A stretch of 37,639 nt of DNA from Clostridia bacterium (GTDB taxonomy: Bacteria; Bacillota; Clostridia; Oscillospirales; Acutalibacteraceae): positions 1 through 37,639 of the forward strand of contig JAFQCR010000006.1 of NCBI GenBank assembly GCA_017416345.1, given 5' to 3'. The notes beneath the pieces are model-generated. The model was not told the origin of the DNA, did no database searches, and saw only the letters and a list, made by a program, of their open reading frames with translations. Positions 11,731 through 35,343 of the stretch are shown here, piece after piece; the first letter of the stretch is position 1; every line of letters begins with the position of its first letter. The position numbers and the translations under genes were made by a program.

Positions 11731-11742
11731 AGGAGAATGCTT

Positions 11743-14109: not shown

Positions 14110-14117
14110 GGATAAAA

Positions 14118-15473: not shown

Positions 15474-15476
15474 ACC

Positions 15477-16532
15477 ATGAAAATGGAAAATTTGCTTAAA
15501 AAGCCTATATTTTTTGAACCCAACCGTGTTGGTCGTGTATACCTCGGCGGTGCGCTGTTTGCCGACTTTTTTGGGGACGGTTCGACCGACGGCTTTGAGC
15601 CCGAGGAATGGGTCGCATCCAACGTGAAGGCTATAAACAAGGTCTCAAAGGGTGAGAAAGAGGGCGTTTCAAGGGTCAAGGATACCGATATATATTTTGA
15701 TGACCTTTTGACAGAACACAAGGCAGAAATGCTGGGTGACCGTGAGGAATTCGGTGTGCTGACCAAGGTCTTGGACAGTGCCATAAGGCTTCCTGCTCAA
15801 GCCCATCCCGACAAGGCGTTTTCAAGGGAGCATTTCAACTCGAACTACGGCAAGGCCGAGTCTTGGGTGGTGCTGGCCACAAGAGAGAATGCAAGTCTTT
15901 ACTTTGGCTTCAACAAGCAGTACACCGAGGATGAGTTTAAGGCCGCCATTGAGCAAAGCAAGACCGACAAATCGGCTATGGAGCGCCTTTTGAACCGTAT
16001 CCCCGTCAAAACGGGTGATGTGTTTTTTGTGCCGGCCAAAATGGCACACGCCATCGGTGCAGGGTGCTTGATTCTGGAGATTCAAGAGCCGTCGGACTTC
16101 ACCGTTCAGCCCGAATATTGGTGCGGTGAGTATCTTTTGAATGATAAGGAAATGTATATCGACCTTCCGAAGGACACCGCCGTCAAGGTGTTTGACTTCT
16201 CGGTGTTCGGTGAAGAAGCCGTCAATATGGGCAGAAAGATTCCGCAGGTGATTTCGGACAAAAACGGTGTGAAGCACGAGGCGCTGATAACCTATTCCGA
16301 TACACCTTGCTTTGCGGTTGAAAGGTATGTGCTGAATAACGCCGAAACCGTTTTGGAGCATAAGCCGTGTGTGTACGTTGTGACCGAGGGTGAGGGTGCC
16401 GTGCTTTGCGGCGGTGACGAAAAGCCGCTTAAAAAGGGTGATTATTTCTTCCTGCCGTTTGCCGCCGACGAGACCGTTATTAAAACCGATACAGCCATTA
16501 CGGTCGTGGCTTGTCTGCCGCCCGAAAAATAA
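15477..16532 (+). CDS. Class I mannose-6-phosphate isomerase-like cupin
   Basis: This 351-residue protein is of the size of short bacterial ManA proteins. The metal-binding residues are Q108 and H110 in AQAHPDK, E128 in GKAESWVVL and H191 in MAHAIGAG. A second cupin-like domain lies at the C-terminus (EGEGAVLCGG, KKGDYFFLP). The family interconverts mannose-6-phosphate and fructose-6-phosphate using Zn2+. As the last gene of the GRE operon, 3 nt after the kinase stop and with GAGGAG upstream, it may act on a different aldose/ketose phosphate. There is no mannose transporter or mannosidase beside it. Canonical ManA function is therefore possible but not shown. Confidence 0.85.
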   Translation: MKMENLLKKPIFFEPNRVGRVYLGGALFADFFGDGSTDGFEPEEWVASNVKAINKVSKGEKEGVSRVKDTDIYFDDLLTEHKAEMLGDREEFGVLTKVLDSAIRLPAQAHPDKAFSREHFNSNYGKAESWVVLATRENASLYFGFNKQYTEDEFKAAIEQSKTDKSAMERLLNRIPVKTGDVFFVPAKMAHAIGAGCLILEIQEPSDFTVQPEYWCGEYLLNDKEMYIDLPKDTAVKVFDFSVFGEEAVNMGRKIPQVISDKNGVKHEALITYSDTPCFAVERYVLNNAETVLEHKPCVYVVTEGEGAVLCGGDEKPLKKGDYFFLPFAADETVIKTDTAITVVACLPPEK

Positions 16533-20519: not shown

Positions 20520-20548
20520 TTGACATTGGTAAAATTTTGAGTTATAAT
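20520..20548 (+). promoter_or_regulatory. Consensus promoter of the CARF-nuclease/RyR/CASTOR unit
   Basis: TTGACA (20520-20525), exactly 17 bp, TATAAT (20543-20548). This is a perfect match to the vegetative consensus and suggests constitutive expression. The predicted transcript start near 20555 lies on top of an in-frame ATG, so translation must begin further down. Confidence 0.8.
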
Positions 20549-20574
20549 CAACTATGTATAAGGAGGGGTGTTTC

Positions 20575-21819
20575 TTGACGGCTGTTGAATTTTATGACCG
20601 TACACCGGTGGAAAATATAATCAGTTCGGTAACGACCGCTCCCGACAAGATAATTTTCATAGGCGACGGTAAGCGAATGAAGAAGTTTCACGGAAATTTC
20701 AGAGCATTTCTTGCCGGCAGGGGAATAGACACCAAGCTTGAGTACCGCAGCATCAACCGTCACGACCTTGACAGCATTGTCAAGGTGCTGACCGATATCG
20801 TGGAAAACGAGGATGAGTGCTTTTTTGATCTCACGGGCGGCGATGATCTGGCGCTTGTGGCAATGGGTATCGTTTATCAGAAATACAAGGATACCAAAAA
20901 ACTTCAGATGCAAAGGTTCAACATCCGCAACGGCGTGGTCACCGATTGCGACGATGACGGAACCGTTATATACGAGGGCACTCCCGAGCTTACGGTTGCC
21001 GAAAACATTATGCTGCACGGCGGCTCTATCAGAAAGTCTGAGTTTGATTCCAGAGTTAACGAATGGGAGCTTACCGAGGATTTTAAGACCGATGTTGAGC
21101 TTATGTGGGAGATATGCCGCAGAGACCCCGGCCTTTGGAATACCCAGCTTAACGTGCTGGCCGCACTTGACGATTTTGCGGCCGATGAGGATTCCCTGGA
21201 GGTCTCGGTGAACCTTGCAAATGTTGAGGAGCATCTTGAAAACGTCGGTGTTAAGTATGTTTCGGTGCTTGAGATGCTGATAGAGCTCTTCAGAAACGAG
21301 TTGATACTCGACCTGTCTGCCGATGAGGAGCATATTTCCTACAGCTATAAGAACCAACAGATCAAAAAGTGTCTTACCAAGGCCGGTAATGTGCTGGAGC
21401 TTAAGGTACTGGTTGCCGCAGGCGACCTTACCGAAAAGGACGGAAGCCCTTATTACACCGACAGCTTAAGCAGTGTTTTTATCGATTGGGACGGCGAGGA
21501 GCATTGCATCGGGGATGACGAAAAGGATACCGAAAACGAGATAGATGTCATTCTGATGAAGGGTATGGTTCCCGTGTTTATCTCCTGTAAAAACGGTCAG
21601 GTGGGTGACGATGAGCTGTACAAGCTGGATGCCGTTGCCAACCGCTTTGGCTCAAGGCACGTGAAAAAGATACTCATTGCGACCTATCTCGGCAAAAAGG
21701 CGCAGAGCATGGAATATTTCAGACAACGTGCCAAGGATATGAACATCACGCTGATCGACGGTGTTCACAAGCTTGATTACGATGAGTTTCAAAGGATGAT
21801 CCGCAACCTTTCGGTCTGA
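20575..21819 (+). CDS. CARF-wHTH-DUF1887 nuclease-like protein (Card1/Can2-like), not linked to CRISPR
   Basis: The protein has 414 residues from TTG 20575, which is 8 nt after AAGGAGG. The N-terminal CARF-type Rossmann domain covers about 1-130: strand KIIFIGDG near 25-32 and FDLTGGDDLALVAMG with TGGD at 87-90, where CARF proteins have TGGTK. A winged-helix segment lies at about 205-265. The C-terminal PD-(D/E)xK domain of DUF1887 has E275, E322, D324 in ENEIDVILMKG and S337-C338-K339 in VFISCKNG. In Card1/Can2 this effector is switched on by cyclic oligoadenylate and cuts DNA and/or RNA. Here the catalytic Glu position is Ser, which may weaken or relocate activity. No cas gene or array is nearby. 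It is the first gene of the cluster, and its ligand is unknown. Confidence 0.83.
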   Translation: MTAVEFYDRTPVENIISSVTTAPDKIIFIGDGKRMKKFHGNFRAFLAGRGIDTKLEYRSINRHDLDSIVKVLTDIVENEDECFFDLTGGDDLALVAMGIVYQKYKDTKKLQMQRFNIRNGVVTDCDDDGTVIYEGTPELTVAENIMLHGGSIRKSEFDSRVNEWELTEDFKTDVELMWEICRRDPGLWNTQLNVLAALDDFAADEDSLEVSVNLANVEEHLENVGVKYVSVLEMLIELFRNELILDLSADEEHISYSYKNQQIKKCLTKAGNVLELKVLVAAGDLTEKDGSPYYTDSLSSVFIDWDGEEHCIGDDEKDTENEIDVILMKGMVPVFISCKNGQVGDDELYKLDAVANRFGSRHVKKILIATYLGKKAQSMEYFRQRAKDMNITLIDGVHKLDYDEFQRMIRNLSV

Positions 21820-21832
21820 CGGACAAGTTTTT

Positions 21833-21871
21833 AATGATGCGTAAGGCTGCGCCTTGCGTTCAGATATCATT
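21833..21871 (+). other. Intercistronic hairpin without T-tract
   Basis: AATGAT (21833-21838) pairs with ATCATT and encloses CGTAAGGC-TGC-GCCTTGCG. With no T-run it is more likely an mRNA processing or stability element than a terminator. Confidence 0.4.
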
Positions 21872-21909
21872 TATCGCTTGGATTAAAAGCGGTAATAAGA
21901 GGTGTTTTT

Positions 21910-23724
21910 ATGGAATGGTTGGTATTTTTTATACTTTCGTTGGCCTGCTTCTTGCTTTCGATAGTATGGGCGGTCAAAAAATCACGGTCCAAGTATAGGA
22001 TCGGTGATTTTATCGATCCCACGAAGATCATTTTTGTGGGCGTTGTTGTGGCAGCGTTGCTTTTGTTCGTTCCGATCTATTGGAATGCGCTTCCCTCAAA
22101 CTGTAAGTTCTGGGAGTATCTGCTCATTCCTATCCACAATATGATAAAGCTGTTTGTCGTTGATGCCGACTTTACCGATACCATCGGCAGCATTGCGGCA
22201 GAGCAGCCATGGCTCAATATTGCCTATTCGTTACTGTTTTCGATCTACTTTGTTTTTGCTCCTATCCTTACCTTCGGTTTTGTACTGTCGTTCTTCAAAA
22301 ACATTTCGGCGTACAAGGAGTATATCACACATTACCATTCCGACGTTTATATCTTCTCGGAGCTGAACGAGAAGTCGTTGGCCTTGGCCAAGAGCCTTGA
22401 CGGCAACCCCGATAAAAACCGCTTTTTTGTTTTTACCGACGTGTTCACAAAGGAAGACGACCGAAGCTATGAGCTGGTCGAGCAGGCAATGCAGCTTGGT
22501 GCTGTCTGCTTCAAAAAGGATATCAATTCGGTAGACTTTACACGTCACAGCAAAAACAGCGAAATGAATTTCCTTGTAATAAGCGAGAACGAGGACGAGA
22601 ATATCAGCCACGCTCTGTCGCTTATAACAAAATTCAAATACCGTGAGAACACCAACCTTTATGTTTTCTCGACCTTGGTAGAGTCGGAAATGCTGTTGGC
22701 TGCCGCCTTTAATAAGCAGACCTCCAAGGACGGTGAAAACGAAGAAACACCCAGAATGAAGATAAGAGTCCGCCGTGTTGACGAGGTACAGTCGCTGGTC
22801 TTCCGTACCCTTTTCGAGCAGGGCTATGAAAAGATCTTCCAAAGTGCGACCGAGCTTCAAAACGGTCAAAAGCAGATATCTGCTGTGCTGGTCGGTATGG
22901 GCAAGCACGGTACCGAAATGGCCAAGGCTTTGGCCTGGTTCTGCCAGATGGACGGATATATTCCCGAGATCACCGCTTATGATATCACGGAGAATGCCGC
23001 ATCGGTATTTGCATCCAAGTGTCCCGAGCTTGTCGATCCCAAGCTCAACGGCGTATATGATATCGACGGTGAGATGAAGTTTAAAATAACCGTCAACGGC
23101 GGTGTTGATGTCAAAAGCAAGGCCTTTGACGATGCCGTTACGGCTCTGCCTAACGTGACCTATGTGTTTGTTGCTTTGGGCGAAGACGGTGACAACATCT
23201 CGACAGCAGTTAAGCTGAGAGGCCTGTTTGCCAAGAACGGTATGGATCCCATTATTCAGGCCATCGTTTATAATACCGATAAGCGTGTTGCTTTGGACGG
23301 TATCACCAACTTCAAGGGTCAGCCCTATGACATCGATTTTATCGGTGATATGGAGACCTCCTATTCCGAAGAGGTCGTGCTGGATTCCGATGTTGAGGAG
23401 CTGGCCTTGGCAAGGCATATGAAGTGGGGCAACGAGGACGACTTCTGGAAATACGGCTATAACTACCGTTCATCCATCGCCTCGGCTATCCACACCGTAA
23501 TGAAGAAAAAATGCGGCATTCCCGGCGTTGAAAAGAAGCCCTGCGACCGTGAAGAGGGAGAGCTTTGGAACTTAAGAAAGCTTGAGCATTGCCGCTGGAA
23601 TGCATATATGCGCTCTCAGGGTTATGTGTATGCACCTAAAAGAAACGATCTGGCTAAAACACATCATTGCCTTGTTCCGTTTGACGAACTTCCGCTTGAA
23701 GAGCAGATAAAGGATGACGATTGA
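21910..23724 (+). CDS. Membrane protein with TrkA/RCK-like Rossmann domains and a C-terminal RyR domain
   Basis: This 604-residue protein starts at ATG 21910 with AAGAGGTG upstream. Hydrophobic segments lie at about 3-23, 40-60 and 103-129. A first Rossmann-like domain begins near residue 143 (DVYIFSELNEKSLALAKSL). A second begins near 323 with the loop G329-M-G331-KH-G334 and continues through YVFVALGEDGDN (418-429). Residues 550-604 (NLRKLEHCRW, YAPKRNDLAKTHHCLVPFDELP) match the ryanodine-receptor repeat (RyR) domain seen in some prokaryotic proteins. There is no K+ selectivity filter. It probably senses NAD-like or ADP-ribose-like nucleotides at the membrane; that is inference from the domain types. 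The Rossmann-RyR part has a diverged copy in the kinase gene at 28797. Confidence 0.78.
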   Translation: MEWLVFFILSLACFLLSIVWAVKKSRSKYRIGDFIDPTKIIFVGVVVAALLLFVPIYWNALPSNCKFWEYLLIPIHNMIKLFVVDADFTDTIGSIAAEQPWLNIAYSLLFSIYFVFAPILTFGFVLSFFKNISAYKEYITHYHSDVYIFSELNEKSLALAKSLDGNPDKNRFFVFTDVFTKEDDRSYELVEQAMQLGAVCFKKDINSVDFTRHSKNSEMNFLVISENEDENISHALSLITKFKYRENTNLYVFSTLVESEMLLAAAFNKQTSKDGENEETPRMKIRVRRVDEVQSLVFRTLFEQGYEKIFQSATELQNGQKQISAVLVGMGKHGTEMAKALAWFCQMDGYIPEITAYDITENAASVFASKCPELVDPKLNGVYDIDGEMKFKITVNGGVDVKSKAFDDAVTALPNVTYVFVALGEDGDNISTAVKLRGLFAKNGMDPIIQAIVYNTDKRVALDGITNFKGQPYDIDFIGDMETSYSEEVVLDSDVEELALARHMKWGNEDDFWKYGYNYRSSIASAIHTVMKKKCGIPGVEKKPCDREEGELWNLRKLEHCRWNAYMRSQGYVYAPKRNDLAKTHHCLVPFDELPLEEQIKDDD

Positions 23725-23751
23725 TCACAATAAAAAACATAAGGCTTACGG

Positions 23752-23799
23752 TATCGAAAGCGGGTAAAAACCGCTTTCGATATTGTCGCTGTTTATAAT
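23752..23799 (+). promoter_or_regulatory. Perfect hairpin and isolated -10-like TATAAT before the CASTOR-like gene
   Basis: TATCGAAAGCGG (23752-23763) and CCGCTTTCGATA (23771-23782) form a perfect 12-bp stem with a 7-nt loop and no T-tract. TATAAT follows at 23794-23799 without a good -35, so an internal promoter is possible but weak. Confidence 0.4.
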
Positions 23800-23829
23800 G
23801 GTTACTGTAGATTGTGTAGGGAGATGTTT

Positions 23830-25959
23830 ATGAGAAAATTTAAAGAATGGCTTAATATTCAGTTGATAAAAAGCCCGGGAAGAATGGTGTTGGGCGCAAT
23901 TATTTTGTTCAACATACTGTTCTTTTTGCTATCTTCCGTAATAATCAGCAATTTCTCTTTAAGCGGAACAGAAAACATGGGCTTTATGGAGGCGGCTTTT
24001 TGTACGCTTACCATGATCCTTGATGCCGGCTGTATACAGTTTGTTGTGGCTGATATAGGCACTGCCAATGTTGTTGTTGCAATAATTTGCCTGGTTGTTA
24101 TTCTTATCGGTATGGTGTCGTTTACCGGCGCTGTTATCGGTTACATAACCAACTATATTTCCAAGTTTATCGAAAATGCAGACGTGGGTGCCAAAAGGCT
24201 GAAGATATCCGATCATTCGGTTATCCTTAACTGGAACTCACGTGCATCCGAGATCATCAATGACCTTATGTATTGTGCGACCAAGCAAAAGGTCGTCGTG
24301 CTTGTGGATTCTCGAAAAAAAGAGATCGAAAAGGAAATATCGGAGCGCCTTGCCGATACCATTCACAAGGAAAATGCTTTGCTGCTGGATTACTGCAGAA
24401 AACAAAACTTCGGATATTTCAAAACCAGGATGTATATGCACAAAAACGCATTCAAAAATAATGTGACCTATATCGTGCGTGAGGGTGATGTTTTCTCGTC
24501 CAAGCAGTTGCTTGATATTTCACTCGACAAAGCCAAAATGATCATTATCCTGGGAAGTGATATTCAAAACTCGGCCTGCAAGTATGAAATGCAGGAAAGA
24601 AGTAATGAGAAGAACAAGGGAAACTCTCAGACCGTCAAGACCTTGATGCAGGTTGCGGATATTACCGCTGCGGAAACTTCAAGTGACAATCAGAAGATAA
24701 TTGTTGAGATCACCGACGATTGGACGGCCGAGCTGGTTCAGAAAATAATCCGCAGTAAGCAGGTCGATGGCAAGTGCAACATAGTTCCCATAATGGTAAA
24801 TCAGGTGCTCGGACACATCCTGTCGCAGTTCTCGCTTATGCCTGAGCTGAACCTTGCCTACCGTGAACTCTTTTCCAACCGTGGTGCCGCCTTCCACACT
24901 GAAGAGGGTGATGAGAAGGATGAGATCGAATTTGTTAAAAAATACCTCAAGAATCACCGCCACGCCATACCGCTGACCTGTATGTCGCAGGGTGGAAAAA
25001 CATTCCACTATTTCTCGGCCGATTCTGAAAAGAATATCAAGAAAACAAGTGACGTAAAACCGTTTGAATACTCCGTTTTGCTCAATCCCGAATACTGGAT
25101 CGAGCGCAAGAACGTCATAATCCTCGGCCATAATAACCGATGTGACGATATTATGCAGGGATTTGAGTCGTTCAGGGGTGAGTGGCAGTATGCCGATGGC
25201 CATGACGAGATAGTTCGTGTTGTTGTTATTGATGATAAGGAGCACCTTGAAAAAGAAAACTACTATAAAAAGTATCCCTTTGTCATCAAAACCGTGGCCG
25301 CTGAGATTTACGACAAGGATCTTATCTGCTCAACCATCAACGATTTTGTATCCTCCAATACTGAGGATACCAGTGTGCTTATCCTTTCGGATGACAGGGC
25401 ATCCAACGAGGATATTGACGCCAAGGCTCTGGCAAACCTGGTTTATGTCCAGGATATTGTTAAGGATAAGGTTTATGAAAACCCTGATTTTGATGTTGAA
25501 AGTATTGATGTCATTGTTGAAATTATCGACCCCAAGCATCATGATGTTGTCAACAGCTACAGCACCAATAACGTTGTTATCAGTAACCGCTATATCAGTA
25601 AGATGATAACCCAGATAGGTGAAAAAGAGGCTTTGTTTGGCTTCTATAACGATATTCTTACCTACGATGTGCAGGATGAAACCATTGAGGGTGTTGAAAC
25701 CGACAGTAAGGAGATTTATATCAAAAAGATATCCCGTCTGTTTACCGAAATACCCAAGGACACTACAGCGGATGTATTTGTCCGTGCACTTTACGAGGCT
25801 TCGGTCGATGCTTCGCTGCCGCCCGACAAGATCAATCCTACTCTTGCTTTGGGATATGTCAAGCCCGGCGGTGATATGACACTTTTTGCAGGTGATCTTT
25901 CACAGATCAGGCTTCATTTTGAAAAGCACGATAAGCTGATACTTTTCAGCAGCCATTAA
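23830..25959 (+). CDS. CASTOR/POLLUX/DMI1-like ion-channel protein with RCK-type domains
   Basis: The protein has 709 residues from ATG 23830. AGGGAG is 6 nt upstream, while the ATG at 23824 abuts it. TM1 is about 19-41, a re-entrant pore-like segment about 55-72 (AAFCTLTMILDAGCIQF) and TM2 about 80-110. The junction into the cytosolic part, ISDHSVILNWNSRASEII at 127-144, follows the layout of plant CASTOR/POLLUX channels (NHTLILGWS). Two RCK/Rossmann units follow, the second from about 428 (NVIILGHNNRCDDIM). The motif ISNRYISKMITQIGE near the C-terminal half is also typical of this family. The plant proteins are Ca2+-regulated or Ca2+-conducting nuclear channels. Ion selectivity cannot be read here because the filter ADxG is replaced by LDAG. 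It is last in its transcription unit. Confidence 0.8.
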   Translation: MRKFKEWLNIQLIKSPGRMVLGAIILFNILFFLLSSVIISNFSLSGTENMGFMEAAFCTLTMILDAGCIQFVVADIGTANVVVAIICLVVILIGMVSFTGAVIGYITNYISKFIENADVGAKRLKISDHSVILNWNSRASEIINDLMYCATKQKVVVLVDSRKKEIEKEISERLADTIHKENALLLDYCRKQNFGYFKTRMYMHKNAFKNNVTYIVREGDVFSSKQLLDISLDKAKMIIILGSDIQNSACKYEMQERSNEKNKGNSQTVKTLMQVADITAAETSSDNQKIIVEITDDWTAELVQKIIRSKQVDGKCNIVPIMVNQVLGHILSQFSLMPELNLAYRELFSNRGAAFHTEEGDEKDEIEFVKKYLKNHRHAIPLTCMSQGGKTFHYFSADSEKNIKKTSDVKPFEYSVLLNPEYWIERKNVIILGHNNRCDDIMQGFESFRGEWQYADGHDEIVRVVVIDDKEHLEKENYYKKYPFVIKTVAAEIYDKDLICSTINDFVSSNTEDTSVLILSDDRASNEDIDAKALANLVYVQDIVKDKVYENPDFDVESIDVIVEIIDPKHHDVVNSYSTNNVVISNRYISKMITQIGEKEALFGFYNDILTYDVQDETIEGVETDSKEIYIKKISRLFTEIPKDTTADVFVRALYEASVDASLPPDKINPTLALGYVKPGGDMTLFAGDLSQIRLHFEKHDKLILFSSH

Positions 25960-25963
25960 GCAC

Positions 25964-26003
25964 AAAAGGCTTTGGACAATTCCGAAGCCTTTTATCTTTT
26001 TTT
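25964..26003 (+). terminator. Terminator after the CASTOR-like gene
   Basis: AAAAGGCTT (25964-25972) pairs with AAGCCTTTT (25985-25993), with an inner GG/CC, followed by ATCTTTTTTT. It splits the cluster into two transcription units. Confidence 0.85.
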
Positions 26004-26026
26004 GATTGCAGTTTTGACAAATGATA

Positions 26027-26055
26027 TTGCCTCAGTCTGATTGTTGTGTTATAAT
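26027..26055 (+). promoter_or_regulatory. Promoter of the unknown-PP2C-kinase unit
   Basis: TTGCCT (26027-26032), 17 bp, TATAAT (26050-26055), about 30 bp before the ATG at 26087. A TTGACA at 26014-26019 is too far from this -10 to be its partner. Confidence 0.6.
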
Positions 26056-26086
26056 TAAAAAAATATGGGTTTTGGGGGAGAAATGT

Positions 26087-28075
26087 ATGCCTGATAATGA
26101 TAAAAGCGTTTTTTATAATTTCACCGAATTGACCAAGTCGCTCAAGCACGAGCTTGATGAGAGATTTAAAAACATCCATTCCAGGGAAGAAATACTGACC
26201 CTTGTTGACGATTTTGTTACCGTCCCTGCTGACGGTAAGGGCGAAAGTGAGCGTGATATAATCACCATCCTCACCGAATCCGACCGATATACAGGCTTTG
26301 TCAAAGCCCACGGAACAAAGCCCTTGTGTGACGACCGTACCGACAGCCAAAAGGTGCAAAAGGCGGCCGAGGAATACCGCAAATACGCCGAGCTTCTGCC
26401 CAAGGATGATGAGGTCGACGGTATTTTCATGAACGAGCTTCATGAGCTTTATGCTCATTACCGTCCGTCCGAAAGCTATATCGACCGTATCGTGCGCCGA
26501 CGTATCGGCAGCATAAGTCCCGAGTTTATCAACGAAAACGATACGACCCGTCTGCTTATTTTAAAGCAGTTTTTAAAGGCTGTGGAGTTCCCCAAGAACA
26601 CGGCTCATTTTTCACGTGCGTTTATGGCCTATATAATCGAGGCTATGGGGTGTGAGCTGAAGGGCGGAAAATCGTCCCGTGCCGCCACGGCCGAGGAGAT
26701 CGCTTCTTTGACCGACAGCGTTTTTGATAAGCTGGCCGAGGCTCCCGAAAAGGGCAAGGATGCTCAAAAGGAGTTCAAGGAAAAGTGGGAGTGGCTGATC
26801 TTTGCCGACGATGTTGCTTCGGGCTTTTTTGACAATCAGCACACCATTCGCCGTAAGATATACATTTTCTCCATCATTTTCCAAATGACCTTCAACACGG
26901 GTGAGGACGGCGATGAGTTTGACGAGCTGACCGATATCGAAAAGAACCTTTTTGCCGATTATTATTCCGATAATCTGATCGACAGCCTTAAATCCGACCG
27001 TGCAACCTCCCGTGACCGTGAGCCTTCGGGCTACGGCATAAACTATAAAAATTTTGTTGAGGTAATTTACCTGTATTTCCTGCACCGAAGTGATCTTTCG
27101 CCCAACGAAAAGCTGCTTCGAGCCGAAAAGATGATAAAAAACTGCGAAACCAAGGATCCTACCGTGCTCAAAATGCAGGAAAAGCTTCACGGCAAAAAGC
27201 ATACTCAATATTATATGAGCCCGCTGCTTTCGGGCGTTATGAGAATGGATGAAGCCGAGTTTGAGGAGTTTATCAAGGAAAACTACATACTCGGTCAAAA
27301 GGGCGTAAATGTTATCCGTGTTGCCGAAAAGAATCTTTCGGCCGCCGATATCTACGAAGGCCTTTACGAAAACCTTGTATCGCTGGTGACCGAGATCTCC
27401 GAAAGCTGCAGAGTGGGTAACGATGTGCTGTATCCTCTGCTTGAAAAGAAGTATTACGAGGAGATACGTTGCCTGGGTTGTGCACGCCGCAAAAAGGAAA
27501 ACGGCGAAAAGCTTTATAAGGATTGTCCTTATTTCGCAGAGGATTGCGCCAACTTTTTTGCCGAATACACCACCGAATCGCACAAGCCGCAGGAGTGGCG
27601 CAGGGTAATAAAAGAGGGCATCGTTAAGGATAATGTGTTCCCGTTGCTTAAAGATCTGGGAACCTTTGAGCTGCCGGATGAGCTGAAGAACGATACCGAT
27701 TTCTGTGATATTATCTCCAAAATCGAGGCCAAGCTTAAGATAAAGGACAAGCGTAATATCATTGAATGCATCGAGTCGACCTTTATGCCGAATGAGGATG
27801 TGGCCTCCTTTGTAACACGCACCAAGATGGTGGTATTATACTATTACAATTTCATACTCACCTATCAGGCCGAGGGCGTTTTGTCCAAGCTTGATTTCAA
27901 CGGATTCAAAGCCTTTTTCGAGGAGTTTTGCGACAGCTTTGAGCTGTATATCGGTGATGAGGCGTTTTACGGCCTTAACACCTGCCTTATGGAGGCCGGA
28001 TATCAGCAGGTAAGCTCCAAAAATCTGTTTGATATGATAATGGTGTTTATGGCGTTCAAAAAATACAAATTCTGA
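26087..28075 (+). CDS. Conserved-looking helical protein of unknown function with a Cys cluster
   Basis: The protein has 662 residues from ATG 26087, with GGGGGAG 6 nt upstream. I do not recognise a family. It is predicted by eye to be almost entirely alpha-helical, charged and soluble, with no signal peptide or membrane segment. A cysteine-rich insert at about residues 462-487 (CLGCARRKKENGEKLYKDC, then PYFAEDC) has the spacing CxxC-x15-C-x6-C and may bind Zn2+ or an Fe-S cluster. No catalytic motif is evident. It opens the second transcription unit and its stop is 8 nt from the PP2C gene, so it is tied to the phosphatase and kinase. It could be an adaptor, a phosphorylation substrate or an effector. 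Confidence 0.7.
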   Translation: MPDNDKSVFYNFTELTKSLKHELDERFKNIHSREEILTLVDDFVTVPADGKGESERDIITILTESDRYTGFVKAHGTKPLCDDRTDSQKVQKAAEEYRKYAELLPKDDEVDGIFMNELHELYAHYRPSESYIDRIVRRRIGSISPEFINENDTTRLLILKQFLKAVEFPKNTAHFSRAFMAYIIEAMGCELKGGKSSRAATAEEIASLTDSVFDKLAEAPEKGKDAQKEFKEKWEWLIFADDVASGFFDNQHTIRRKIYIFSIIFQMTFNTGEDGDEFDELTDIEKNLFADYYSDNLIDSLKSDRATSRDREPSGYGINYKNFVEVIYLYFLHRSDLSPNEKLLRAEKMIKNCETKDPTVLKMQEKLHGKKHTQYYMSPLLSGVMRMDEAEFEEFIKENYILGQKGVNVIRVAEKNLSAADIYEGLYENLVSLVTEISESCRVGNDVLYPLLEKKYYEEIRCLGCARRKKENGEKLYKDCPYFAEDCANFFAEYTTESHKPQEWRRVIKEGIVKDNVFPLLKDLGTFELPDELKNDTDFCDIISKIEAKLKIKDKRNIIECIESTFMPNEDVASFVTRTKMVVLYYYNFILTYQAEGVLSKLDFNGFKAFFEEFCDSFELYIGDEAFYGLNTCLMEAGYQQVSSKNLFDMIMVFMAFKKYKF

Positions 28076-28083
28076 ACATTGGA

Positions 28084-28776
28084 GTGAGTGTTATCATCGG
28101 TGTTTACTGCAGTTCTGTTATAGGCAGAGCGCATAAAGAAAACGGTCTGCAAAATCAAGATGCCGTATCGGTTTTTGAAAATGAAAGAATAGCGCTTGCG
28201 GTGTTGTCCGACGGGGTCTCTGAATGTGAATTCGGCGGCCAAGGTGCCGAAGCGGCAGTCAAGGTGACCGAACGGCTTTTGGTCAAGAACCACCAAAAGC
28301 TTTGGAAAATGCCGCCGCAAAAAACGGTTGGCATCATATTGAATGAGGTGCGTCACGGATTGTCGAGCCTTGCTGAAGGTGACCTTTCCCGATGCGCCAG
28401 CACGCTGTGCTTTGCGCTGTTGGACAAGGTCTCACGCCGCTTGATGCTGTTTAAATTAGGGGACAGCAATGTGTATCTTTTTTCAAAGGACGGGTGCGCC
28501 TTGTTTGGCAAGGGTCAGGGTGCGGACACACGTTTTACCGTTTCACCCGATGCCGAAGCGGCCGCCGAGCTTGAGATGGTGGACGGTGTTGGTCTGACCG
28601 CTGTTATGCTGTGCTCCGACGGTGCCTGGCGCTCGATGTATGACGGCAACCGTTTGAAAGATGAACTGACAGCCGCCGCAGCTTCGGGCGATACCGAGAC
28701 GTTCAAACAGCATTTTGATTCGCAGGAAAACACAGACGATTCCAGCTTTGCTTTAATACATTTAAGTAACAATTAA
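28084..28776 (+). CDS. PP2C-family Ser/Thr protein phosphatase
   Basis: This 230-residue protein is of the compact PP2C_2 type. Visible motifs are NQD26 near the N-terminus, SD43-G44-VSECEFGG, GD127-S, CSD179-G-AW and the terminal D218-D219-SSF. These acidic residues coordinate the di-Mn/Mg centre. It should dephosphorylate targets of the adjacent kinase, an arrangement common in bacterial phospho-signalling pairs. The start is uncertain: GTG 28084 fits the family N-terminus, but GGAG at 28081-28084 overlaps it, so translation may depend on coupling with the upstream gene, whose stop is 8 nt away. The kinase gene begins 20 nt after its stop. Confidence 0.85.
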   Translation: MSVIIGVYCSSVIGRAHKENGLQNQDAVSVFENERIALAVLSDGVSECEFGGQGAEAAVKVTERLLVKNHQKLWKMPPQKTVGIILNEVRHGLSSLAEGDLSRCASTLCFALLDKVSRRLMLFKLGDSNVYLFSKDGCALFGKGQGADTRFTVSPDAEAAAELEMVDGVGLTAVMLCSDGAWRSMYDGNRLKDELTAAAASGDTETFKQHFDSQENTDDSSFALIHLSNN

Positions 28777-28796
28777 CTGCTTTTGGGAGGTTCACA

Positions 28797-31700
28797 ATGG
28801 AAACAGAAAGCCGACAGTTTTTGTTGAACGGTGATACCATTGTTTTGAACAAGATAAATATGAGCACGGGACAGACGCTGTCAAACGAGGGCGACGAGTT
28901 TACCGTGCTTTCTCGCGTTGGTGAGGGCGGCTCATCGGTGTGCTACGAGGCACGCTGCGAAAGCGACGGTGCTCACGGTCGCCTGAAGGAGTTTTACCCT
29001 ATAGATCTGCCCGAGGAAAAGGCTTATTTTTCGGTTGAGCGTGGGCAAAATAACCAGCTCACCGCCGCATTGGAGACCGACGGCACACTCAAGGCCTTTG
29101 AGACCGCACGTAGTGACTTCAAGGAGGCCTATTGTGCGCTGGCCGGAGCCAAAAACCGTGAGTTTGGCGCTGTGCTCAACAACTATATCCCGCCCTTTGA
29201 GCTTTACGAGGGTCTGGGACAAAGCGGTTCGGGACTCAAAAGCATTTATGTTTGGACACGGCACGACAAGCAGGTCATGCCGTTTGACCGATATATTGAA
29301 ATTTTAAGGGATGACCTTAAGCTCAACAAAAACCCCGAAAAGCATCTGTTTAACGTGCTTAATGCGTTGCTTACGCTTTCAAAATGCATACGCGCGTTGC
29401 ACACAGCCGACCTTGTTCATCTGGACATCAAGCCGAGTAACTTCGGCATCCATACCGATGAAAAGGGTCAGGTCGATTCCAGCAGTATCTCGCTGTATGA
29501 TGTCAACACGATCTTTTCGGCGGGGGATAGCTTTACCAGAACGGCAGGCACCTTTGGCTTCAGAGCTCCCGAGGTGGAGTTTGGCCGTGGAGGCACACGT
29601 TCGGATATTTATTCCATCGGCGCAACGCTGTTTTATGCTCTTACTGCGGCCGACAGCTTTGACGGTGTTTACCGTGACGAGTATTACGGCAGGATCGACA
29701 CGCTTGTGTCTAACTCCAAGCTTATAACCGCTTCGGATAAGAATTCCAATTCCGGACTTCACGACATTTTGGTCAAGATACTTAAAAATTGCCTTGCACA
29801 CCATCCCGACAAGCGTTACAAGGCTTGCTCTTATCTTGTGGATGACCTTGCATTGGCACGTGCTTTTATACTTCCCTATGAAGCAAGAGAAGCGTTGACA
29901 GAGCTTGGTCAGGAAATAAAGATAGTCAACATTGAGGAGCACCTTGACAGCGAGATAGAATCGGGTGCTTTGGGTGCTATTCAGCGGCTTTTGTTTGAGC
30001 GTCCGCTTTATACTGCCGCCGTTGACGGTGTTGTCAGAGTACTGGTGCTGGGCGCAGGAACCTATGCTCAAAAGTTTATCGACACGGCATTTGCCGCCGC
30101 ACAGATAAAGGATCTGAGGCTTCAGATAACCGCCGTTTCGCAAGGCAAGGAAGCCGACAAACAGCGTTATCTCAATTCAAGACCTGCGTTTGAGCGCTTT
30201 TTTACGGTCGATTCTATTCCGCCCGAGGGTACTTCTCTGGGTGAGATAAGCTTTGTGTCTACCTCAAAGGGTAGGCGTGAACGCAGCTTCAGCCGTGATG
30301 ACGATGCGGTCAACCAAGCTATAATCAGCGATATCAGAAACAGCCACGATGCGTTTTCGTACGTGTTTATTGCTCTGGGTGAGGATGGGCTTAATTACCG
30401 CCTGGCCGAGGAATGCCTTAAATGCGACGGACTTTTGGCCGAAAACTGCAGCGTGAACTTTGTATGGTACGGCGAAAAGCGTGATCTTGCGGCAGGCACT
30501 CCCGTTTTTGTTAACGATGTCATCACCGAATCACCTGAGTACGGTGATCTTAAAAGAATGGCCTTTAACTGCCATTGCTTATGGAACGATTCGCTCAATG
30601 TTGATCTAAAAAAACTCAAAGCCGAGTTTAAAAACCGATATAATTTCCATTCCAGCCTGAGCAATGCGCTTTCCATAAAATATAAGCTTCACAGCGTTGG
30701 TATCGACGATATCAGCGACCGTTGTACTGCGGCAAGGGCTTTTTGCCGTTTTATTGAGGAAAACCGTGAGGCCGAGCAACAGCTTTCGATGTATGAGCAC
30801 CGCCGTTGGCTGGTCTGCAATATATGTGAGGGCTGGGATACCTTGAGTGACCTTTCGGCACTCACCAATGACACACGTGACCGCAAAAAGAGACTGCATC
30901 CGTGTATTGTAGAAAGCCATGCCGAGCGCAGGCTTCAGACCGCCGAATGGCAGGCTGACAGCCACGCAAAATGGGATACGGCAACCGATGCGGAGCTTTG
31001 CGAGCTCGACGGACTTGACCGTGCTTCGGTGCTGATGCACCGTCACTTCAAGAATATAGCCGAGAAGGCAATACGCCTTTCACAATATAAGACCGATGTT
31101 GAGCAGATAAGATATGCTTTGCACGGTCACACCGAGGCTCTTAAGGCGTTTGAGCTTTTTGTTGATTGTCTTGACGGAATAGCCAACGGAAAAAAGCGTC
31201 AGGTGAGACTGTATGATTTTTATAATGCGGAATTCAAGGCGCAGGTGAAAAAACTGCCGACGTCTGTGGCTCAAAGCATCAAAAATAATTTCGAAGCCTT
31301 GGAGGAAACATTCTATCCCGTGCTTCAAAGCCTTAAATATACCGATTACAAGCAACACGACCGAAAACTGGTCGAGGGTATTCCGTTTATTCTGACCTAT
31401 TCCGACAGTATCGGTCTTGTGCAGACCCTGGAGCACGGCGAACACGTCGGTGTTAAGGAAAATAAATGGTTTGACCGTATAGCGCCGGTCATCGCTGTCG
31501 ATCCGAGGTCGGTCATTTTGGTTGCCGAGCTTGAAGGTCAAGACGACAGCGATATGCTGACCGACGGCTTGAGGTATATGGTAAAAGCGGCAGATGCTCG
31601 GAATCTGCAAACAAGGTTTGACGTTTTGTTTTTGAATAACGGACTTTTTGACGAAACGGCCGAACTAAGATTTAAACTGAAGCAGTTGTCTCCGAGGTTT

Positions 31701-32960
31701 GGCAATATTGAGTTTGCCGACAGCGACGACGGAGAGTTTCTTCGGGAATATTTTGCCGAAAAGAGCCGCAAAGATACGCTCTGTGCTTTGAGAAAGGCCA
31801 AGGGAGGCATCTTTGAAAAGCTTTTGTCGGCAGGGGTCGACAAGCTGCTGCCGACCTTTGAGTTTGATTCATATAACGGACGCTTTGAGACCGATGAGCG
31901 GTGCGATCATTTGAAGTACATCGACCGTCACCAATGCCTTAAACCGAGCGATATGCCGCACGTTGCCGCTTCCGACAGTATCGGTGCAGGACTTGGGGCA
32001 GAGCTTAGGCTTATGGGAGAGATCTCAAATACCGAGTGTTGGCATTATCTGTGCAACTCCTTAAAGGAGCATACTGAGAATATCGACACCGTGCTTGAGT
32101 TTCACGTTTCGTTGGGATCGGTCAAGGCTGATGTGTTTGTGCCGACGGCGTTAAAGGAAAAGGTCGAAAAGCTGTTGGAGGACATAAAAGAGGCGGTACC
32201 GACGGCTGTTGATTCTTATAAGATCACTTCTCACACCGCTTCGGTAGTGAGGTTGACGCTTTGCGGAAACGAGGGGCTTATAAACGGCTTGAAGAACCTT
32301 TCGTTTAAGCAGTATCTTTTGAACGATGTTCCGTCGTTGAGGGTGATAGCCGACCGAAATAAGGTCAAGGCAATGGGCTGCAGCCTTGCGGTCGAGGGCT
32401 TTAAGCTCAACTTCGGTGACCGTTCAGAGAAGCTGTCACAGCAGGCCTTTGCGGTGCTTGAAGCATTGGCCGAGGACGGCAGGATACTTGGCCTGCAGCG
32501 TGACGGTGATAATGTTGGATTCTGCTTCCCGTCGTTAAGAGAAAAGCTGTTGCTGACCAATCCCGAGCTCAATTTTGCGCTGTCGCTTTACCGCAGCGTG
32601 CTGGAATCGGGTCGGTTTGACGATTGCTTCGGTGTGTTTGACACCGAGACCTATAAGTCGATGCTGAAATACCCGTTTGATATGATACTGATAAAGGACT
32701 TTAGGTCGCTTATCGTTGAGTGCTGTGTTGAGGCGTTGGATGAGGCAGTTTATGAAAAACTGCTCAATACCTACCGCAATATCGGCATCAACGCAACACC
32801 CGTTATGGTTTGTCCAAGAGCATATGCGAATGCCGACAAGGCCTTGACTGAAAAATATGAGGCTTTGGGCGTCCAGACCGTTTTCGATGATGATGGCACA
32901 AAAAGCAGTACAGCACTTGAAAAGCTCGAGCGCATTTTGTCCGATAAAAAGAAAAAATGA
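28797..32960 (+). CDS. Ser/Thr kinase fused to Rossmann-RyR-like and pseudo-CARF-DUF1887-like regions
   Basis: This 1387-residue protein has GGGAGG 6 nt before ATG. Residues 35-355 are a eukaryotic-like kinase: G-loop GEGGSS (42-47), K64, HLD210-IKPSN, D235-V-N in place of DFG, and APE (257-259) with SDIYSIGATLF. Residues 411-710 repeat the arrangement of the membrane protein at 21910: VLVLGAGTYAQKF, YVFIALGEDGLN (522-533), YNFHSSLSNAL, then an RyR-like segment EHRRWLVCNICEGW with KRLHPCIV. Residues from about 885 to the end follow the CARF-wHTH-DUF1887 protein at 20575. The TGG motif is lost, and D1295...E1308-C-C1310 corresponds to D324...S337-C-K339. It is probably a soluble signalling kinase whose tail is a non-catalytic sensor or dimerisation partner. 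Confidence 0.8.
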   Translation: METESRQFLLNGDTIVLNKINMSTGQTLSNEGDEFTVLSRVGEGGSSVCYEARCESDGAHGRLKEFYPIDLPEEKAYFSVERGQNNQLTAALETDGTLKAFETARSDFKEAYCALAGAKNREFGAVLNNYIPPFELYEGLGQSGSGLKSIYVWTRHDKQVMPFDRYIEILRDDLKLNKNPEKHLFNVLNALLTLSKCIRALHTADLVHLDIKPSNFGIHTDEKGQVDSSSISLYDVNTIFSAGDSFTRTAGTFGFRAPEVEFGRGGTRSDIYSIGATLFYALTAADSFDGVYRDEYYGRIDTLVSNSKLITASDKNSNSGLHDILVKILKNCLAHHPDKRYKACSYLVDDLALARAFILPYEAREALTELGQEIKIVNIEEHLDSEIESGALGAIQRLLFERPLYTAAVDGVVRVLVLGAGTYAQKFIDTAFAAAQIKDLRLQITAVSQGKEADKQRYLNSRPAFERFFTVDSIPPEGTSLGEISFVSTSKGRRERSFSRDDDAVNQAIISDIRNSHDAFSYVFIALGEDGLNYRLAEECLKCDGLLAENCSVNFVWYGEKRDLAAGTPVFVNDVITESPEYGDLKRMAFNCHCLWNDSLNVDLKKLKAEFKNRYNFHSSLSNALSIKYKLHSVGIDDISDRCTAARAFCRFIEENREAEQQLSMYEHRRWLVCNICEGWDTLSDLSALTNDTRDRKKRLHPCIVESHAERRLQTAEWQADSHAKWDTATDAELCELDGLDRASVLMHRHFKNIAEKAIRLSQYKTDVEQIRYALHGHTEALKAFELFVDCLDGIANGKKRQVRLYDFYNAEFKAQVKKLPTSVAQSIKNNFEALEETFYPVLQSLKYTDYKQHDRKLVEGIPFILTYSDSIGLVQTLEHGEHVGVKENKWFDRIAPVIAVDPRSVILVAELEGQDDSDMLTDGLRYMVKAADARNLQTRFDVLFLNNGLFDETAELRFKLKQLSPRFGNIEFADSDDGEFLREYFAEKSRKDTLCALRKAKGGIFEKLLSAGVDKLLPTFEFDSYNGRFETDERCDHLKYIDRHQCLKPSDMPHVAASDSIGAGLGAELRLMGEISNTECWHYLCNSLKEHTENIDTVLEFHVSLGSVKADVFVPTALKEKVEKLLEDIKEAVPTAVDSYKITSHTASVVRLTLCGNEGLINGLKNLSFKQYLLNDVPSLRVIADRNKVKAMGCSLAVEGFKLNFGDRSEKLSQQAFAVLEALAEDGRILGLQRDGDNVGFCFPSLREKLLLTNPELNFALSLYRSVLESGRFDDCFGVFDTETYKSMLKYPFDMILIKDFRSLIVECCVEALDEAVYEKLLNTYRNIGINATPVMVCPRAYANADKALTEKYEALGVQTVFDDDGTKSSTALEKLERILSDKKKK

Positions 32961-33316: not shown

Positions 33317-35308
33317 ATGGCTAAAAAGCCGGAATACGGTAATGAAAGTATCACATCGTTAAAGGGTGCCGACCGAGTACGAAAGAGACCTGCGGTCATC
33401 TTCGGCTCGAACGGTCTTGAGGGCTGTCAGCACTCGGTTTTTGAGATCATCTCAAACTCTATTGACGAAGCACGTGAGGGTCACGGTAAGAAAATTATAA
33501 TAACAAGATTCAGCGACCATTCTATCGAGGTGCAGGACTTCGGACGTGGCGCACCGGTCGACTTTAACCAAAAGGAAAACCGCTACAACTGGGAGCTTTT
33601 GTACTGCGAAATGTACGCAGGCGGTAAGTATGACACCGGCAGCGGTGACGGTTATGAGTTTTCACTCGGTATGAACGGTCTCGGTCTTTGCTCAACGCAG
33701 TATGCCTCGGAGTATATGGATGTTGAGATCAAGCGTGACGGCTTCCTTTACACCCTGCATTTTGAAAAGGGTGAAAACGTCGGCGGACTTAAAAAGGAGC
33801 CTTATTCGGGTAAGGATACAGGAACCAAGACCCGTTGGAAGCCCGATCTTGAGGTCTTTACCGATATCGACATTCCGCTGGACTATTATATGGATGTTTT
33901 GAAGCGTCAGGCCGTTGTCAATGACAATGTTGTGCTGGTGCTCCGTGACCAGGTTGGAAGCAACAAGTTTGAGACCTACGAGTTCTGCTATAAAGAGGGT
34001 ATCAAGGACTACGTTACCGAGATAGTTGCCGATAAGGGACTTTCAACGGTACAGTTCTGGCAGACCGAGCGAAAGGGTCGTGACCGTGAGGACAAGCCCG
34101 AGTATAAGGTCAAGATAAATGCCGCTGTCTGCTTCTCCAACCAAGTTCAGCTTAAAGAGTATTACCACAACTCAAGCTGGCTTGAGCACGGCGGCTCGCC
34201 CGAGCGTGCTGTCAGAAACGCATTTGTCTACCAGATAGACAAGTACATCAAGGACAATAATAAATACACCAAAAACGAGAGCAAGATATCCTTTGCCGAT
34301 ATCGAGGAATGCCTTGTGCTTTGCACCTCGAGCTTCTCGACCGCATCGCAGACCTCTTACGAAAACCAGACCAAAAAGGCCATCACCAACAAGTTTATCG
34401 GTGATGCAATGGCCGAATTCTTCCGCCATCAGCTTGAGGTCTATTTCATCGAAAATAAAGAAGAAGCCGAAAGAATAGTCAATCAGGTGCTTATCAACAA
34501 GCGCAGCCGTGAACGCTCCGAGCGTGAGAGACTTAACCTTAAAAAGACCTTGTCCACGGGTAACGATCTGCTCAGCAGGATCGACAAGTTTGTTGATTGC
34601 CGCTCCAAAGACCCCAATGAGCGTGAGTTGTTTATCGTTGAGGGTGATTCGGCTTTGGGTTCGGTCAAAATGGCAAGAAATGCAGAATTCCAGGCCGTTA
34701 TCCCGGTCAGAGGTAAGATTCTGAACTGCCTTAAGGCTGAGTATGAGCGTATCTTCAAGTCGGAGATCATCACCAACCTTATCAAGGTTTTGGGATGCGG
34801 TGTTGAGGTAAAATCCAAGGCCAATAAGGATATTTCCAACTTTAATCTTGATGCCCTTCGCTGGAACAAGGTCATAATCTGTACCGATGCCGACGAGGAC
34901 GGATTCCAGATAAGAACGCTTATCCTTACCATGATATACCGTCTTGTGCCTACATTGATCGAAGCAGGTAAGGTCTTTATTGCGGAAACTCCGCTTTATG
35001 AGATAACCACCAAGGACAAGACCTATTTTGCCTACGACGAAAGGGAAAAGGCCGACATTATGACCAATATGGTGGGCGATAGTAAATGCACCGTACAGCG
35101 TTCAAAGGGTCTTGGTGAAAACCAGGCCGATATGATGAGCCTTACCACCATGAATCCCGATACACGCCGTCTTATAAAGGTTTCTCCCGAGGATGCCGAG
35201 GCTACCGCCCATATGTTTGACATCCTTTTGGGTGACAACATTGACGGACGTAAGGAGATCATCACCGAAAAGGGCAACCTTTATATTGCCAATGCCGACT
35301 TGAGCTAA
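33317..35308 (+). CDS. Divergent type II topoisomerase subunit B (GyrB/ParE-like)
   Basis: This 663-residue protein is of the size of ParE/GyrB. The GHKL ATPase domain is at the N-terminus: Mg-binding N47 in EIISNSIDEA, FGRGAPVD, GMNGLGL and GTKTRWKPD. The QTK element appears as YENQTKKAITNKF. The TOPRIM domain has E442 in VEGDSALGS and the D524-A-D526-E-D528 cluster, then SKGLGENQADMM. Compared with canonical EGDSAGGSAKQGRD and TDADVDGAHIRTL, several core residues differ, so it belongs to the divergent clostridial topoisomerase group and may serve as topoisomerase IV. AAGGATGG precedes the ATG by 8 nt. It is co-transcribed with the A-subunit gene 35 bp downstream. Confidence 0.88.
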   Translation: MAKKPEYGNESITSLKGADRVRKRPAVIFGSNGLEGCQHSVFEIISNSIDEAREGHGKKIIITRFSDHSIEVQDFGRGAPVDFNQKENRYNWELLYCEMYAGGKYDTGSGDGYEFSLGMNGLGLCSTQYASEYMDVEIKRDGFLYTLHFEKGENVGGLKKEPYSGKDTGTKTRWKPDLEVFTDIDIPLDYYMDVLKRQAVVNDNVVLVLRDQVGSNKFETYEFCYKEGIKDYVTEIVADKGLSTVQFWQTERKGRDREDKPEYKVKINAAVCFSNQVQLKEYYHNSSWLEHGGSPERAVRNAFVYQIDKYIKDNNKYTKNESKISFADIEECLVLCTSSFSTASQTSYENQTKKAITNKFIGDAMAEFFRHQLEVYFIENKEEAERIVNQVLINKRSRERSERERLNLKKTLSTGNDLLSRIDKFVDCRSKDPNERELFIVEGDSALGSVKMARNAEFQAVIPVRGKILNCLKAEYERIFKSEIITNLIKVLGCGVEVKSKANKDISNFNLDALRWNKVIICTDADEDGFQIRTLILTMIYRLVPTLIEAGKVFIAETPLYEITTKDKTYFAYDEREKADIMTNMVGDSKCTVQRSKGLGENQADMMSLTTMNPDTRRLIKVSPEDAEATAHMFDILLGDNIDGRKEIITEKGNLYIANADLS

Positions 35309-35343
35309 AGTCGATTTTCAAATAACAGTCAAGGAGTAAAAAT

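What the first reader, a model, noticed from the sequence alone, without database searches (positions are those of the whole stretch)
20520..32960. CRISPR-independent signalling/conflict cluster: CARF-nuclease, RyR membrane sensor, CASTOR-like channel, unknown protein, PP2C and composite kinase
Six adjacent same-strand genes in two transcription units (20520-25959 and 26027-32960) combine a Card1/Can2-like CARF-DUF1887 protein, two membrane proteins with Rossmann/RCK domains (one with RyR, one CASTOR/POLLUX-like), a phosphatase and a kinase. CARF effectors are normally driven by cyclic oligoadenylates from type III CRISPR, but no cas gene or array is in the window. Prokaryotic RyR and TrkA-N domains have been proposed by comparative genomics to recognise nucleotides. 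The set reads as: nucleotide or NAD-derived signal, membrane channel response, phospho-relay, nuclease output. Anti-phage defence and general stress signalling are both possible.
Basis: partly seen in the sequence, partly recalled or inferred. Interest (0 to 1): 0.95.

Follow-up and report, generated by a model that had tools for sequence, protein, structure and literature searches.

The report
Kinase-phosphatase operon with RyR sensors
A gut-type bacterium carries a cluster of signalling genes that joins a protein-kinase switch to parts resembling a CRISPR-type nuclease, a ryanodine-receptor nucleotide sensor and a plant-type ion channel; its core recurs in other bacteria, often beside immune genes, and looks like an undescribed anti-virus alarm.

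Summary
The six genes, their order and the two transcription units are real. The second unit, g4-PP2C-kinase, is a discrete system: a search with g4 alone found the kinase just downstream in 7 of 7 new, evaluable loci, one in Erysipelotrichaceae. The kinase also carries a Rossmann segment, an RyR-like segment and a Can2/Card1 fold. Its nuclease motif is intact in 6 of 9 core loci and dead in 3, including the window, where the separate Card1-like g1 is intact. g1, g2 and g3 mostly occur elsewhere without the core. No other locus I fetched has four of the six orthologues, so one six-gene system is only partly supported. Cas10 and Cas1 were not found in this genome. TIR genes lie in 5 of 9 core loci. 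g2's RyR keeps, at exact spacing, four residues that bind cADPR in phage RyDEP. Best reading: a mobile, CRISPR-independent immune phospho-switch, probably reading an NAD-derived or other nucleotide signal, with nuclease and channel outputs. Ligand, polarity and phage defence are untested.

The parts
20520..20548 (+). promoter-like site of unit 1 (TTGACA-17-TATAAT, 12 of 12)
20575..21819 (+). g1: free-standing Can2/Card1-like CARF-PDDEXK protein; motif NEID...ISCK intact, 'DLTGG' present; start placed at TTG 20575 by comparison with homologues
21910..23724 (+). g2: membrane protein (by eye) with Rossmann (TrkA-N-like) segment and C-terminal RyR domain
23575..23721 (+). RyR domain of g2; H560, W563, H585, D602 at the spacing (0, 3, 25, 42) of RyDEP H75, W78, H100, D117
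23830..25959 (+). g3: RCK protein related to plant CASTOR/DMI1 ion channels; two hydrophobic segments around a pore-like loop by eye
25964..25993 (+). terminator-like hairpin with T run after g3
26027..26055 (+). promoter-like site of unit 2 (10 of 12, TG-extended)
26087..28075 (+). g4: mostly helical protein of unknown fold, signature of the core operon (DN, EPSGxGINxKN motifs)
28084..28776 (+). g5: PP2C-family phosphatase
28797..32960 (+). g6: composite kinase (kinase - Rossmann - RyR-like - CARF-like - PDDEXK-like), 1387 aa
28908..29861 (+). kinase domain of g6 (LKEFYP, HLDIKPSN, SLYDVNT); boundaries approximate
29979..30551 (+). Rossmann segment of g6, like that of g2; boundaries approximate
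30759..30911 (+). RyR-like segment of g6 (EHRRW...HPCIV)
31413..31787 (+). CARF-like fold of g6, motif degenerate; boundaries approximate
32535..32945 (+). PDDEXK-like domain of g6 with dead motif (YPFD/VECC) near 32670-32726; boundaries approximate

Best explanation
The window holds a mobile, CRISPR-independent immune signalling locus made of a conserved core (g4, PP2C, composite kinase) and three add-on modules (a free Card1-like nuclease g1, a membrane Rossmann-RyR sensor g2, and a CASTOR-like RCK channel g3). Proposed working: (1) infection or membrane stress raises a nucleotide ligand, most likely an ADP-ribose-type molecule from TIR enzymes, or a cyclic oligonucleotide read by CARF; (2) the RyR/Rossmann segments of g6 and g2 bind it; (3) the kinase of g6, normally held off by PP2C, phosphorylates itself, g4 and/or the partners and so sets a threshold; (4) the outputs are nucleic-acid cleavage by the Card1-like domain (in most relatives fused to the kinase, here by g1 because the fused copy is dead) and ion flux through g3, giving dormancy or death of the infected cell. 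Shown: anatomy, recurrence of the core, loss of the fused nuclease motif here, conservation of the RyR ligand residues in g2, TIR neighbours of relatives, no Cas10 or Cas1 found. Inferred: the ligand, the order of events, activity of every enzyme, and anti-phage function.
For: Core recurrence: the g4-only search gave 11 loci; 2 were in the query alignment and 2 end 0 and 229 bases after g4; the other 7 of 7 have the kinase as next or next-but-one gene (in L057 only its first 213 residues are on the contig, and in L056 its C-terminus is cut). The core is also in G669. Foldseek of the g6 model: all 9 matches with E<=0.001 are Can2, Card1 or Cdn1. Nuclease motif intact in 6 of 9 core loci with a C-terminus, dead in 3 (window, L051, L034). 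An RyR gene directly follows the kinase in L011, L053, L060 and L093; a g2 homologue lies downstream in L052. TIR genes in 5 of 9 core loci against 0.25 expected at genome-average density. RyR binding residues in g2 as in RyDEP. Conjugation genes near L034 and L054. No full-length g6 in the 3 other genomes of the genus searched.
Against: No phage challenge or biochemistry. TIR genes are absent from the window; five lie elsewhere in the genome. If TIR density in defence islands is tenfold the genome average, the TIR excess is weak (P 0.044). The small RyR genes of L011, L053 and L048 have Thr where RyDEP has the phosphate-binding His, and g2 of L052 lacks the exact spacing, so ligands may differ. 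The orphan CARF nuclease VC1899 does not respond to cA4 (PMC7969007, passage). L051 and L034 have a dead fused nuclease and no g1 in the fetched stretch, so nuclease output is not universal. PP2C was not detected in 4 of 11 core loci. In the loci fetched, g2 is tied to the core only in the window and L052, g3 only in the window.
Confidence: 0.5

Rival explanations
1. Two unrelated neighbours: the g4-g5-g6 core is one defence or stress system, and g1-g2-g3 is a separate nucleotide-sensing membrane and nuclease set that merely landed beside it in a variable spot upstream of the parE-like gene.
For: Separate promoter-like sites and a terminator-like hairpin between the units. g1 shows no other cluster member nearby in 11 of 12 loci examined. 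g2 is common without the core (27 of 345 genomes with own; 0 of 15 fetched loci show g4 or the kinase). g2-g3 without the core in L071. The stretch upstream of the parE-like gene differs among genus relatives; in G002 a homologue of the window's 18568 gene lies about 15 kb upstream with other genes between.
Against: L052 has g4, kinase and a g2 homologue of 45% identity together; four core loci have an RyR gene right after the kinase. Loss of the fused nuclease motif beside an intact free homologue suggests complementation, though L051 and L034 lack g1.
Confidence: 0.3
2. A general stress or envelope-signalling relay (osmotic, potassium or calcium, redox): CASTOR-like RCK channel, RyR/Rossmann sensing of NAD(H) or adenine nucleotides, and kinase-phosphatase output to housekeeping targets, without anti-phage purpose.
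For: Many g1 and g2 homologues lie among housekeeping-looking genes (by eye); RCK and TrkA-N domains commonly read adenine nucleotides (established knowledge).
Against: Patchy distribution (g4 profile: 3 of 394 order genomes, own included, not counting one weak partial hit), location near conjugation genes, TIR and NB-ARC neighbours, type I cas genes beside L011.
Confidence: 0.15
3. A cyclic-oligoadenylate pathway cut loose from type III CRISPR: g1 and the fused module still answer cA4-type ligands made by an unidentified cyclase.
For: Can2/Card1 architecture in g1 and g6; 'DLTGG' motif in g1.
Against: No Cas10 match in 18 of 18 genomes searched; the CARF motif is degenerate in the kinase of the window; VC1899 precedent without cA4 response. 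CD-NTases were not searched.
Confidence: 0.15

Closest known systems
Can2/Card1 (DUF1887) type III CRISPR ancillary nucleases
   Same: CARF plus PD-ExK architecture of g1, and the fold of the C-terminal part of g6
   Different: No Cas10 or Cas1 found in the genome; in the core loci the module is fused behind kinase, Rossmann and RyR segments, and is dead in the window
Can1 (duplicated Can2 with one dead nuclease-like domain; PMC7969007, passages)
   Same: Pairing of one dead and one intact Can2-like unit
   Different: Here the two units are separate proteins, the dead one in a kinase; whether they assemble is unknown
Thoeris (TIR plus effector; cADPR signals) and phage RyDEP (PMC13232231, parts 1-2 of 6 and passages)
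   Same: TIR genes in 5 of 9 core loci; RyR domain with the RyDEP ligand residues in g2
   Different: No TIR or ThsA-type effector recognised among the six; RyR here is host-encoded and joined to membrane and kinase proteins
GTPase-centric GAP1-N2 and related NTP-dependent conflict systems (PMC7159879, section 29 and passages)
   Same: Kinase, PP2C and vWA genes beside the core in L053, vWA and PP2C in L060 (Pfam; the L053 PP2C by tblastn); tubulin-like plus vWA-like (by eye) beside the core in L051 and beside g2-like genes in L044 and L128
   Different: No GTPase or GAP1 match among the six; RyR and TrkA do not occur in that paper's main text
KKP kinase-kinase-phosphatase anti-phage module (PMC11341870, abstract and section list)
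   Same: Kinase-phosphatase balance as a defence switch
   Different: One kinase, fused to sensor and nuclease-like domains, with g4; no prophage seen
CASTOR/DMI1 (POLLUX) plant ion channels
   Same: g3 RCK region, profile E 8e-11
   Different: Bacterial, in an operon with an RyR protein; ion selectivity unknown

Membership tests
Type III CRISPR Can2/Card1 effector | CARF domain followed by PD-ExK nuclease with intact motif (g1) | tested here: met
Type III CRISPR Can2/Card1 effector | Cas10-containing type III system in the genome | tested here: not met
   PF22335 in 0 of 18 genomes incl. G000; control rang in 5 of 14, E. coli among them. Cas1 in 1 of 8 genomes (G085), not in G000; control 9 of 14
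Type III CRISPR Can2/Card1 effector | activation by cA4 | not testable with these tools
   needs biochemistry
RyR (PF02026) domain family | sequence match to RyR domains | tested here: met
   g2: single sequence under the Pfam cut-off, profile 2.9e-10 to an RyR structure
RyR (PF02026) domain family | ligand residues H, W, H, D | tested here: met
   g2: 4 of 4 at exact spacing; g6 keeps H, W and a displaced H, D not placed
CASTOR/DMI1-type channel | RCK-region homology | tested here: met
CASTOR/DMI1-type channel | two-helix pore with cation conduction | tested here: inconclusive
   hydrophobic segments and pore-like loop by eye only; no structure predicted for g3
Thoeris | ThsB TIR plus ThsA effector gene pair | tested here: not met
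   no TIR or SIR2-SLOG match among the six proteins; TIRs only on other contigs
GAP1-N2 GTPase-centric system | GTPase and GAP1 components | tested here: not met
   no such Pfam match among the six; other window genes not scanned
g4-PP2C-composite kinase core (defined here) | g4 immediately upstream of the kinase, with or without PP2C between | tested here: met
   11 contigs including the window; kinase cut short in L056 and L057
Known PADLOC 2023 defence system | model covering g4 or full-length g6 | tested here: not met
   g4 none; of 34 matches to g6 the 25 shown lie in the kinase domain

The most novel reading that the evidence does not exclude
A bacterial forerunner of ryanodine-receptor signalling: TIR-made cyclic ADP-ribose is bound by host RyR domains on a membrane protein (g2) and on a kinase (g6), opening a CASTOR-like channel (g3) and releasing a Card1-type nuclease (g1) under kinase-phosphatase control, as an immune death programme independent of CRISPR.
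Probability: 0.2. Interest if true: 0.92.

Novelty: new variant of a known kind. Interest (0 to 1): 0.72.

Why it matters
If right, it adds a kinase-phosphatase switch wired to Card1-type nuclease and RyR sensing to the immune repertoire, explains some CARF nucleases in genomes without Cas10, and offers a tractable bacterial setting to ask what RyR domains bind and how they couple to CASTOR-like channels. I found no description of the composite kinase or g4 in the listings of the paper searches made; two likely papers, Makarova 2020 and Burroughs 2015 (recalled), are not held, so prior mention there cannot be excluded.

Tried and rejected
One type III system with g1 as its effector: rejected, no Cas10 or Cas1 found. 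The first CRISPR query, PF09651, was uninformative because its control rang nowhere. Phage or plasmid carriage: viral contigs gave no relatives of g2 or of g6's C-terminal part (pattern scans that miss distant kin); plasmids gave 13 records, all in the kinase region. Proof of an empty site: the upstream nucleoside-kinase-like query matched nothing in 8 genomes, so only the parE-like side could be compared; the stretches upstream differ, so no clean empty site is claimed. A distant g4 upstream of the L035 kinase: weak, hhalign probability 13%, not claimed. g4 fold: model mean pLDDT 67.5, no PDB match with E<=0.001. Sequence search of g1 and of the A5 profile against PDB chains found nothing; only the fold search did. 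The kinase tree has long branches and few well-supported forks (2 of 9 starred), so only the window-L051 pair and the six-row clade are used. g4 as a nucleotide cyclase: no evidence. On re-checking, my ORF picker had hidden some genes: a raw tblastn showed a small RyR gene also in L129, and g2 in all 15 loci.
Full report
WHAT IS THERE. Six plus-strand genes fill 20575-32960. g1 is a CARF-PDDEXK protein, g2 a membrane (by eye) Rossmann-RyR protein, g3 an RCK protein, g4 an unknown, g5 a PP2C phosphatase, g6 a 1387-aa kinase. g3's channel identity was not significant by single-sequence search but is with a profile of four homologues: DMI1 8e-11, CASTOR 1.1e-9.

g6 is more than a kinase. Its middle shares the Rossmann-RyR arrangement of g2 ('YNYxSS...KYK...LEHRRW...H.C.V'). 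Its C-terminal third is a Can2/Card1-like unit: the 1018-residue model (mean pLDDT 78.9, 11 sequences) has nine PDB matches at E<=0.001, all Can2, Card1 or Cdn1. Their TM-scores are at most 0.30 with rmsd over 22, because short targets were aligned across more than 500 columns of a multi-domain model, so the fold call rests on the E-values and on sequence: g1 matches the C-terminus of the L011 homologue (29%, 9e-10). In g6 the nuclease motif is lost (YPFD/VECC); in g1 it is intact (NEID/ISCK).

THE CORE OPERON. Among 59 relatives besides the window's own genome, one (G028, 32% identity) matched g6 along its length; the other matches there are kinase-domain only. In that contig, L011, the order is g4, PP2C, composite kinase with an intact nuclease, a small RyR gene, then cas3 (Pfam) and cas5- and cas8-like genes named by eye. 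Scanning the contigs of 84,980 species' genomes with two degenerate patterns from three g4 sequences gave 107 stretches, of which 11 encode g4; such a scan is not exhaustive. Two of the 11 were already in the alignment. L055 and L059 stop 0 and 229 bases after g4. In the remaining 7 of 7 the kinase is the next or next-but-one gene; in L056 and L057 the contig cuts the kinase (1176 and 213 residues left), and g4 there lies in two ORFs. With G669, L011, L034 and the window this makes 11 contigs with g4 followed by the kinase; G407 has the parts at contig ends. PP2C lies between them in 7 of 11 (window, L011, L051, L053, L057, L060, L093) and was not detected in L034, L052, L054 and L056. The nuclease motif is intact in 6 of 9 core loci that hold the C-terminus (L011, L052, L053, L054, L060, L093), dead in the window, L051 and L034, and partly altered in the G407 fragment. 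Two relatives of g6, L035 (with kinase) and L036 (without the kinase domain), lack a recognisable g4.

DISTRIBUTION. Core hits are rare and patchy. By the g4 profile 4 of 394 order genomes rang: the window's own, G407, G345 and one weak partial hit (G154) that I do not count. By the C-terminal kinase profile, 7 of 398 phylum genomes rang: own, one further long match (G669) and five with Card1-like nucleases only. The Erysipelotrichaceae copy (L060) lies among Clostridia copies, and G028, of the window's own family, falls outside the window's starred six-row clade, which suggests transfer (long branches, few strong forks). L034 lies beside a T4SS coupling protein and L054 has a relaxase upstream. 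The three genus relatives lack a full-length g6.

THE ADD-ONS. g1: the order search found 16 genomes with a Card1-like single protein besides the window's; I fetched 12, and 11 show no other cluster member in the stretch (some stretches are short); L048 has an RyR gene and two g2-like proteins nearby. g2: 27 of 345 genomes, own included. In 15 fetched loci g2 was found in all, none of g1, g3, g4, g5 or g6 beside it, and a small RyR gene in 3 (L121, L129, L133). TIR genes were confirmed beside g2 in 4 (L121, L123, L126, L129; only these four neighbours were sent to Pfam). g3: two strong homologues in 345 genomes (65-66%), one beside g2 (L071). So g1-g3 are portable parts; g4-g6 is the system.

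LINK TO IMMUNITY AND LIGAND. Within 9 core loci with usable flanks, 5 contain TIR genes (L052, L053, L054, L060, L093). The contigs of L011, L034 and the window have no TIR_2 match, and none was seen in L051. At the mean TIR density of 8 genomes (26 in 19.3 Mb) 0.25 loci are expected, P 1.8e-6; at tenfold density P is 0.044. The baseline genomes were chosen because they carry parts of the cluster, one of them (G669) supplies a counted locus, and the test was made after seeing the pattern. The window has no TIR; five lie on other contigs. [quoted passage not shown] In g2 and its L071 homologue H, W, H and D stand at the same spacing 0, 3, 25, 42. g2 of L052 lacks this exact spacing. g6-type segments keep W and the later H in 11 of 11 aligned rows and the first H in at least 90%. 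The small RyR genes of L011, L053 and L048 have T at the third place (those of L060, L093 and L044 gave no row there). So cADPR-like binding is plausible for g2, less certain for the others.

MECHANISM. The arrangement kinase + opposing PP2C + sensor + nuclease in one operon fits a thresholded kill switch, as in the KKP kinase-phosphatase module (PMC11341870, abstract). Can1 is a precedent for a dead Can2 copy kept beside a live one (PMC7969007, passages), so the window's dead fused copy and live g1 may assemble. L051 and L034, with a dead copy and no g1 nearby, show that the kinase can have another output.

VERDICT.

Noticed in passing
L053:3628-5586, L092:2524-4140, L093:1541-3596: A three-gene set next to g4 (about 160-250 aa, 150-160 aa, and a membrane protein of about 300 aa, cut by the contig end in L092; similarity judged by eye) may be a further component; the membrane proteins of L053 and L093 have no Pfam match.
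   Followed up: partly
L044:8513-18903, L051:12564-17273, L070:203-8612, L071:1-11347, L125:9670-19999, L128:9976-18171: Clusters joining g2- or g3-like membrane proteins or the core with vWA-like proteins (by eye), tubulin-like GTPases (Pfam in L044 and L051) and very large membrane proteins, resembling the GAP1-N2 tubulin theme of PMC7159879.
   Followed up: partly
L011:12337-17187: A type I CRISPR cas3 followed by cas5- and cas8-like genes (names by eye except cas3) beyond the core operon of G028; no Cas1 match in that 72%-complete genome.
   Followed up: partly
window 11008-16532: By eye, a glycyl-radical enzyme with its activase, a sugar kinase and a mannose-6-phosphate-isomerase-like gene; an ordinary-looking sugar operon.
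   Followed up: no
window 33317-37584: GyrB/ParE-like and GyrA/ParC-like pair just downstream; the first is 86-89% identical in three genus relatives, while the DNA upstream of it differs in each.
   Followed up: partly
L135, L136, L137 (own genome): Five TIR_2 matches elsewhere in the genome, none beside RyR or core genes in the stretches read.
   Followed up: partly
L121:1292-5480: Five tandem copies of a similar roughly 240-300 aa lipoprotein-like gene near a g2 homologue.
   Followed up: no
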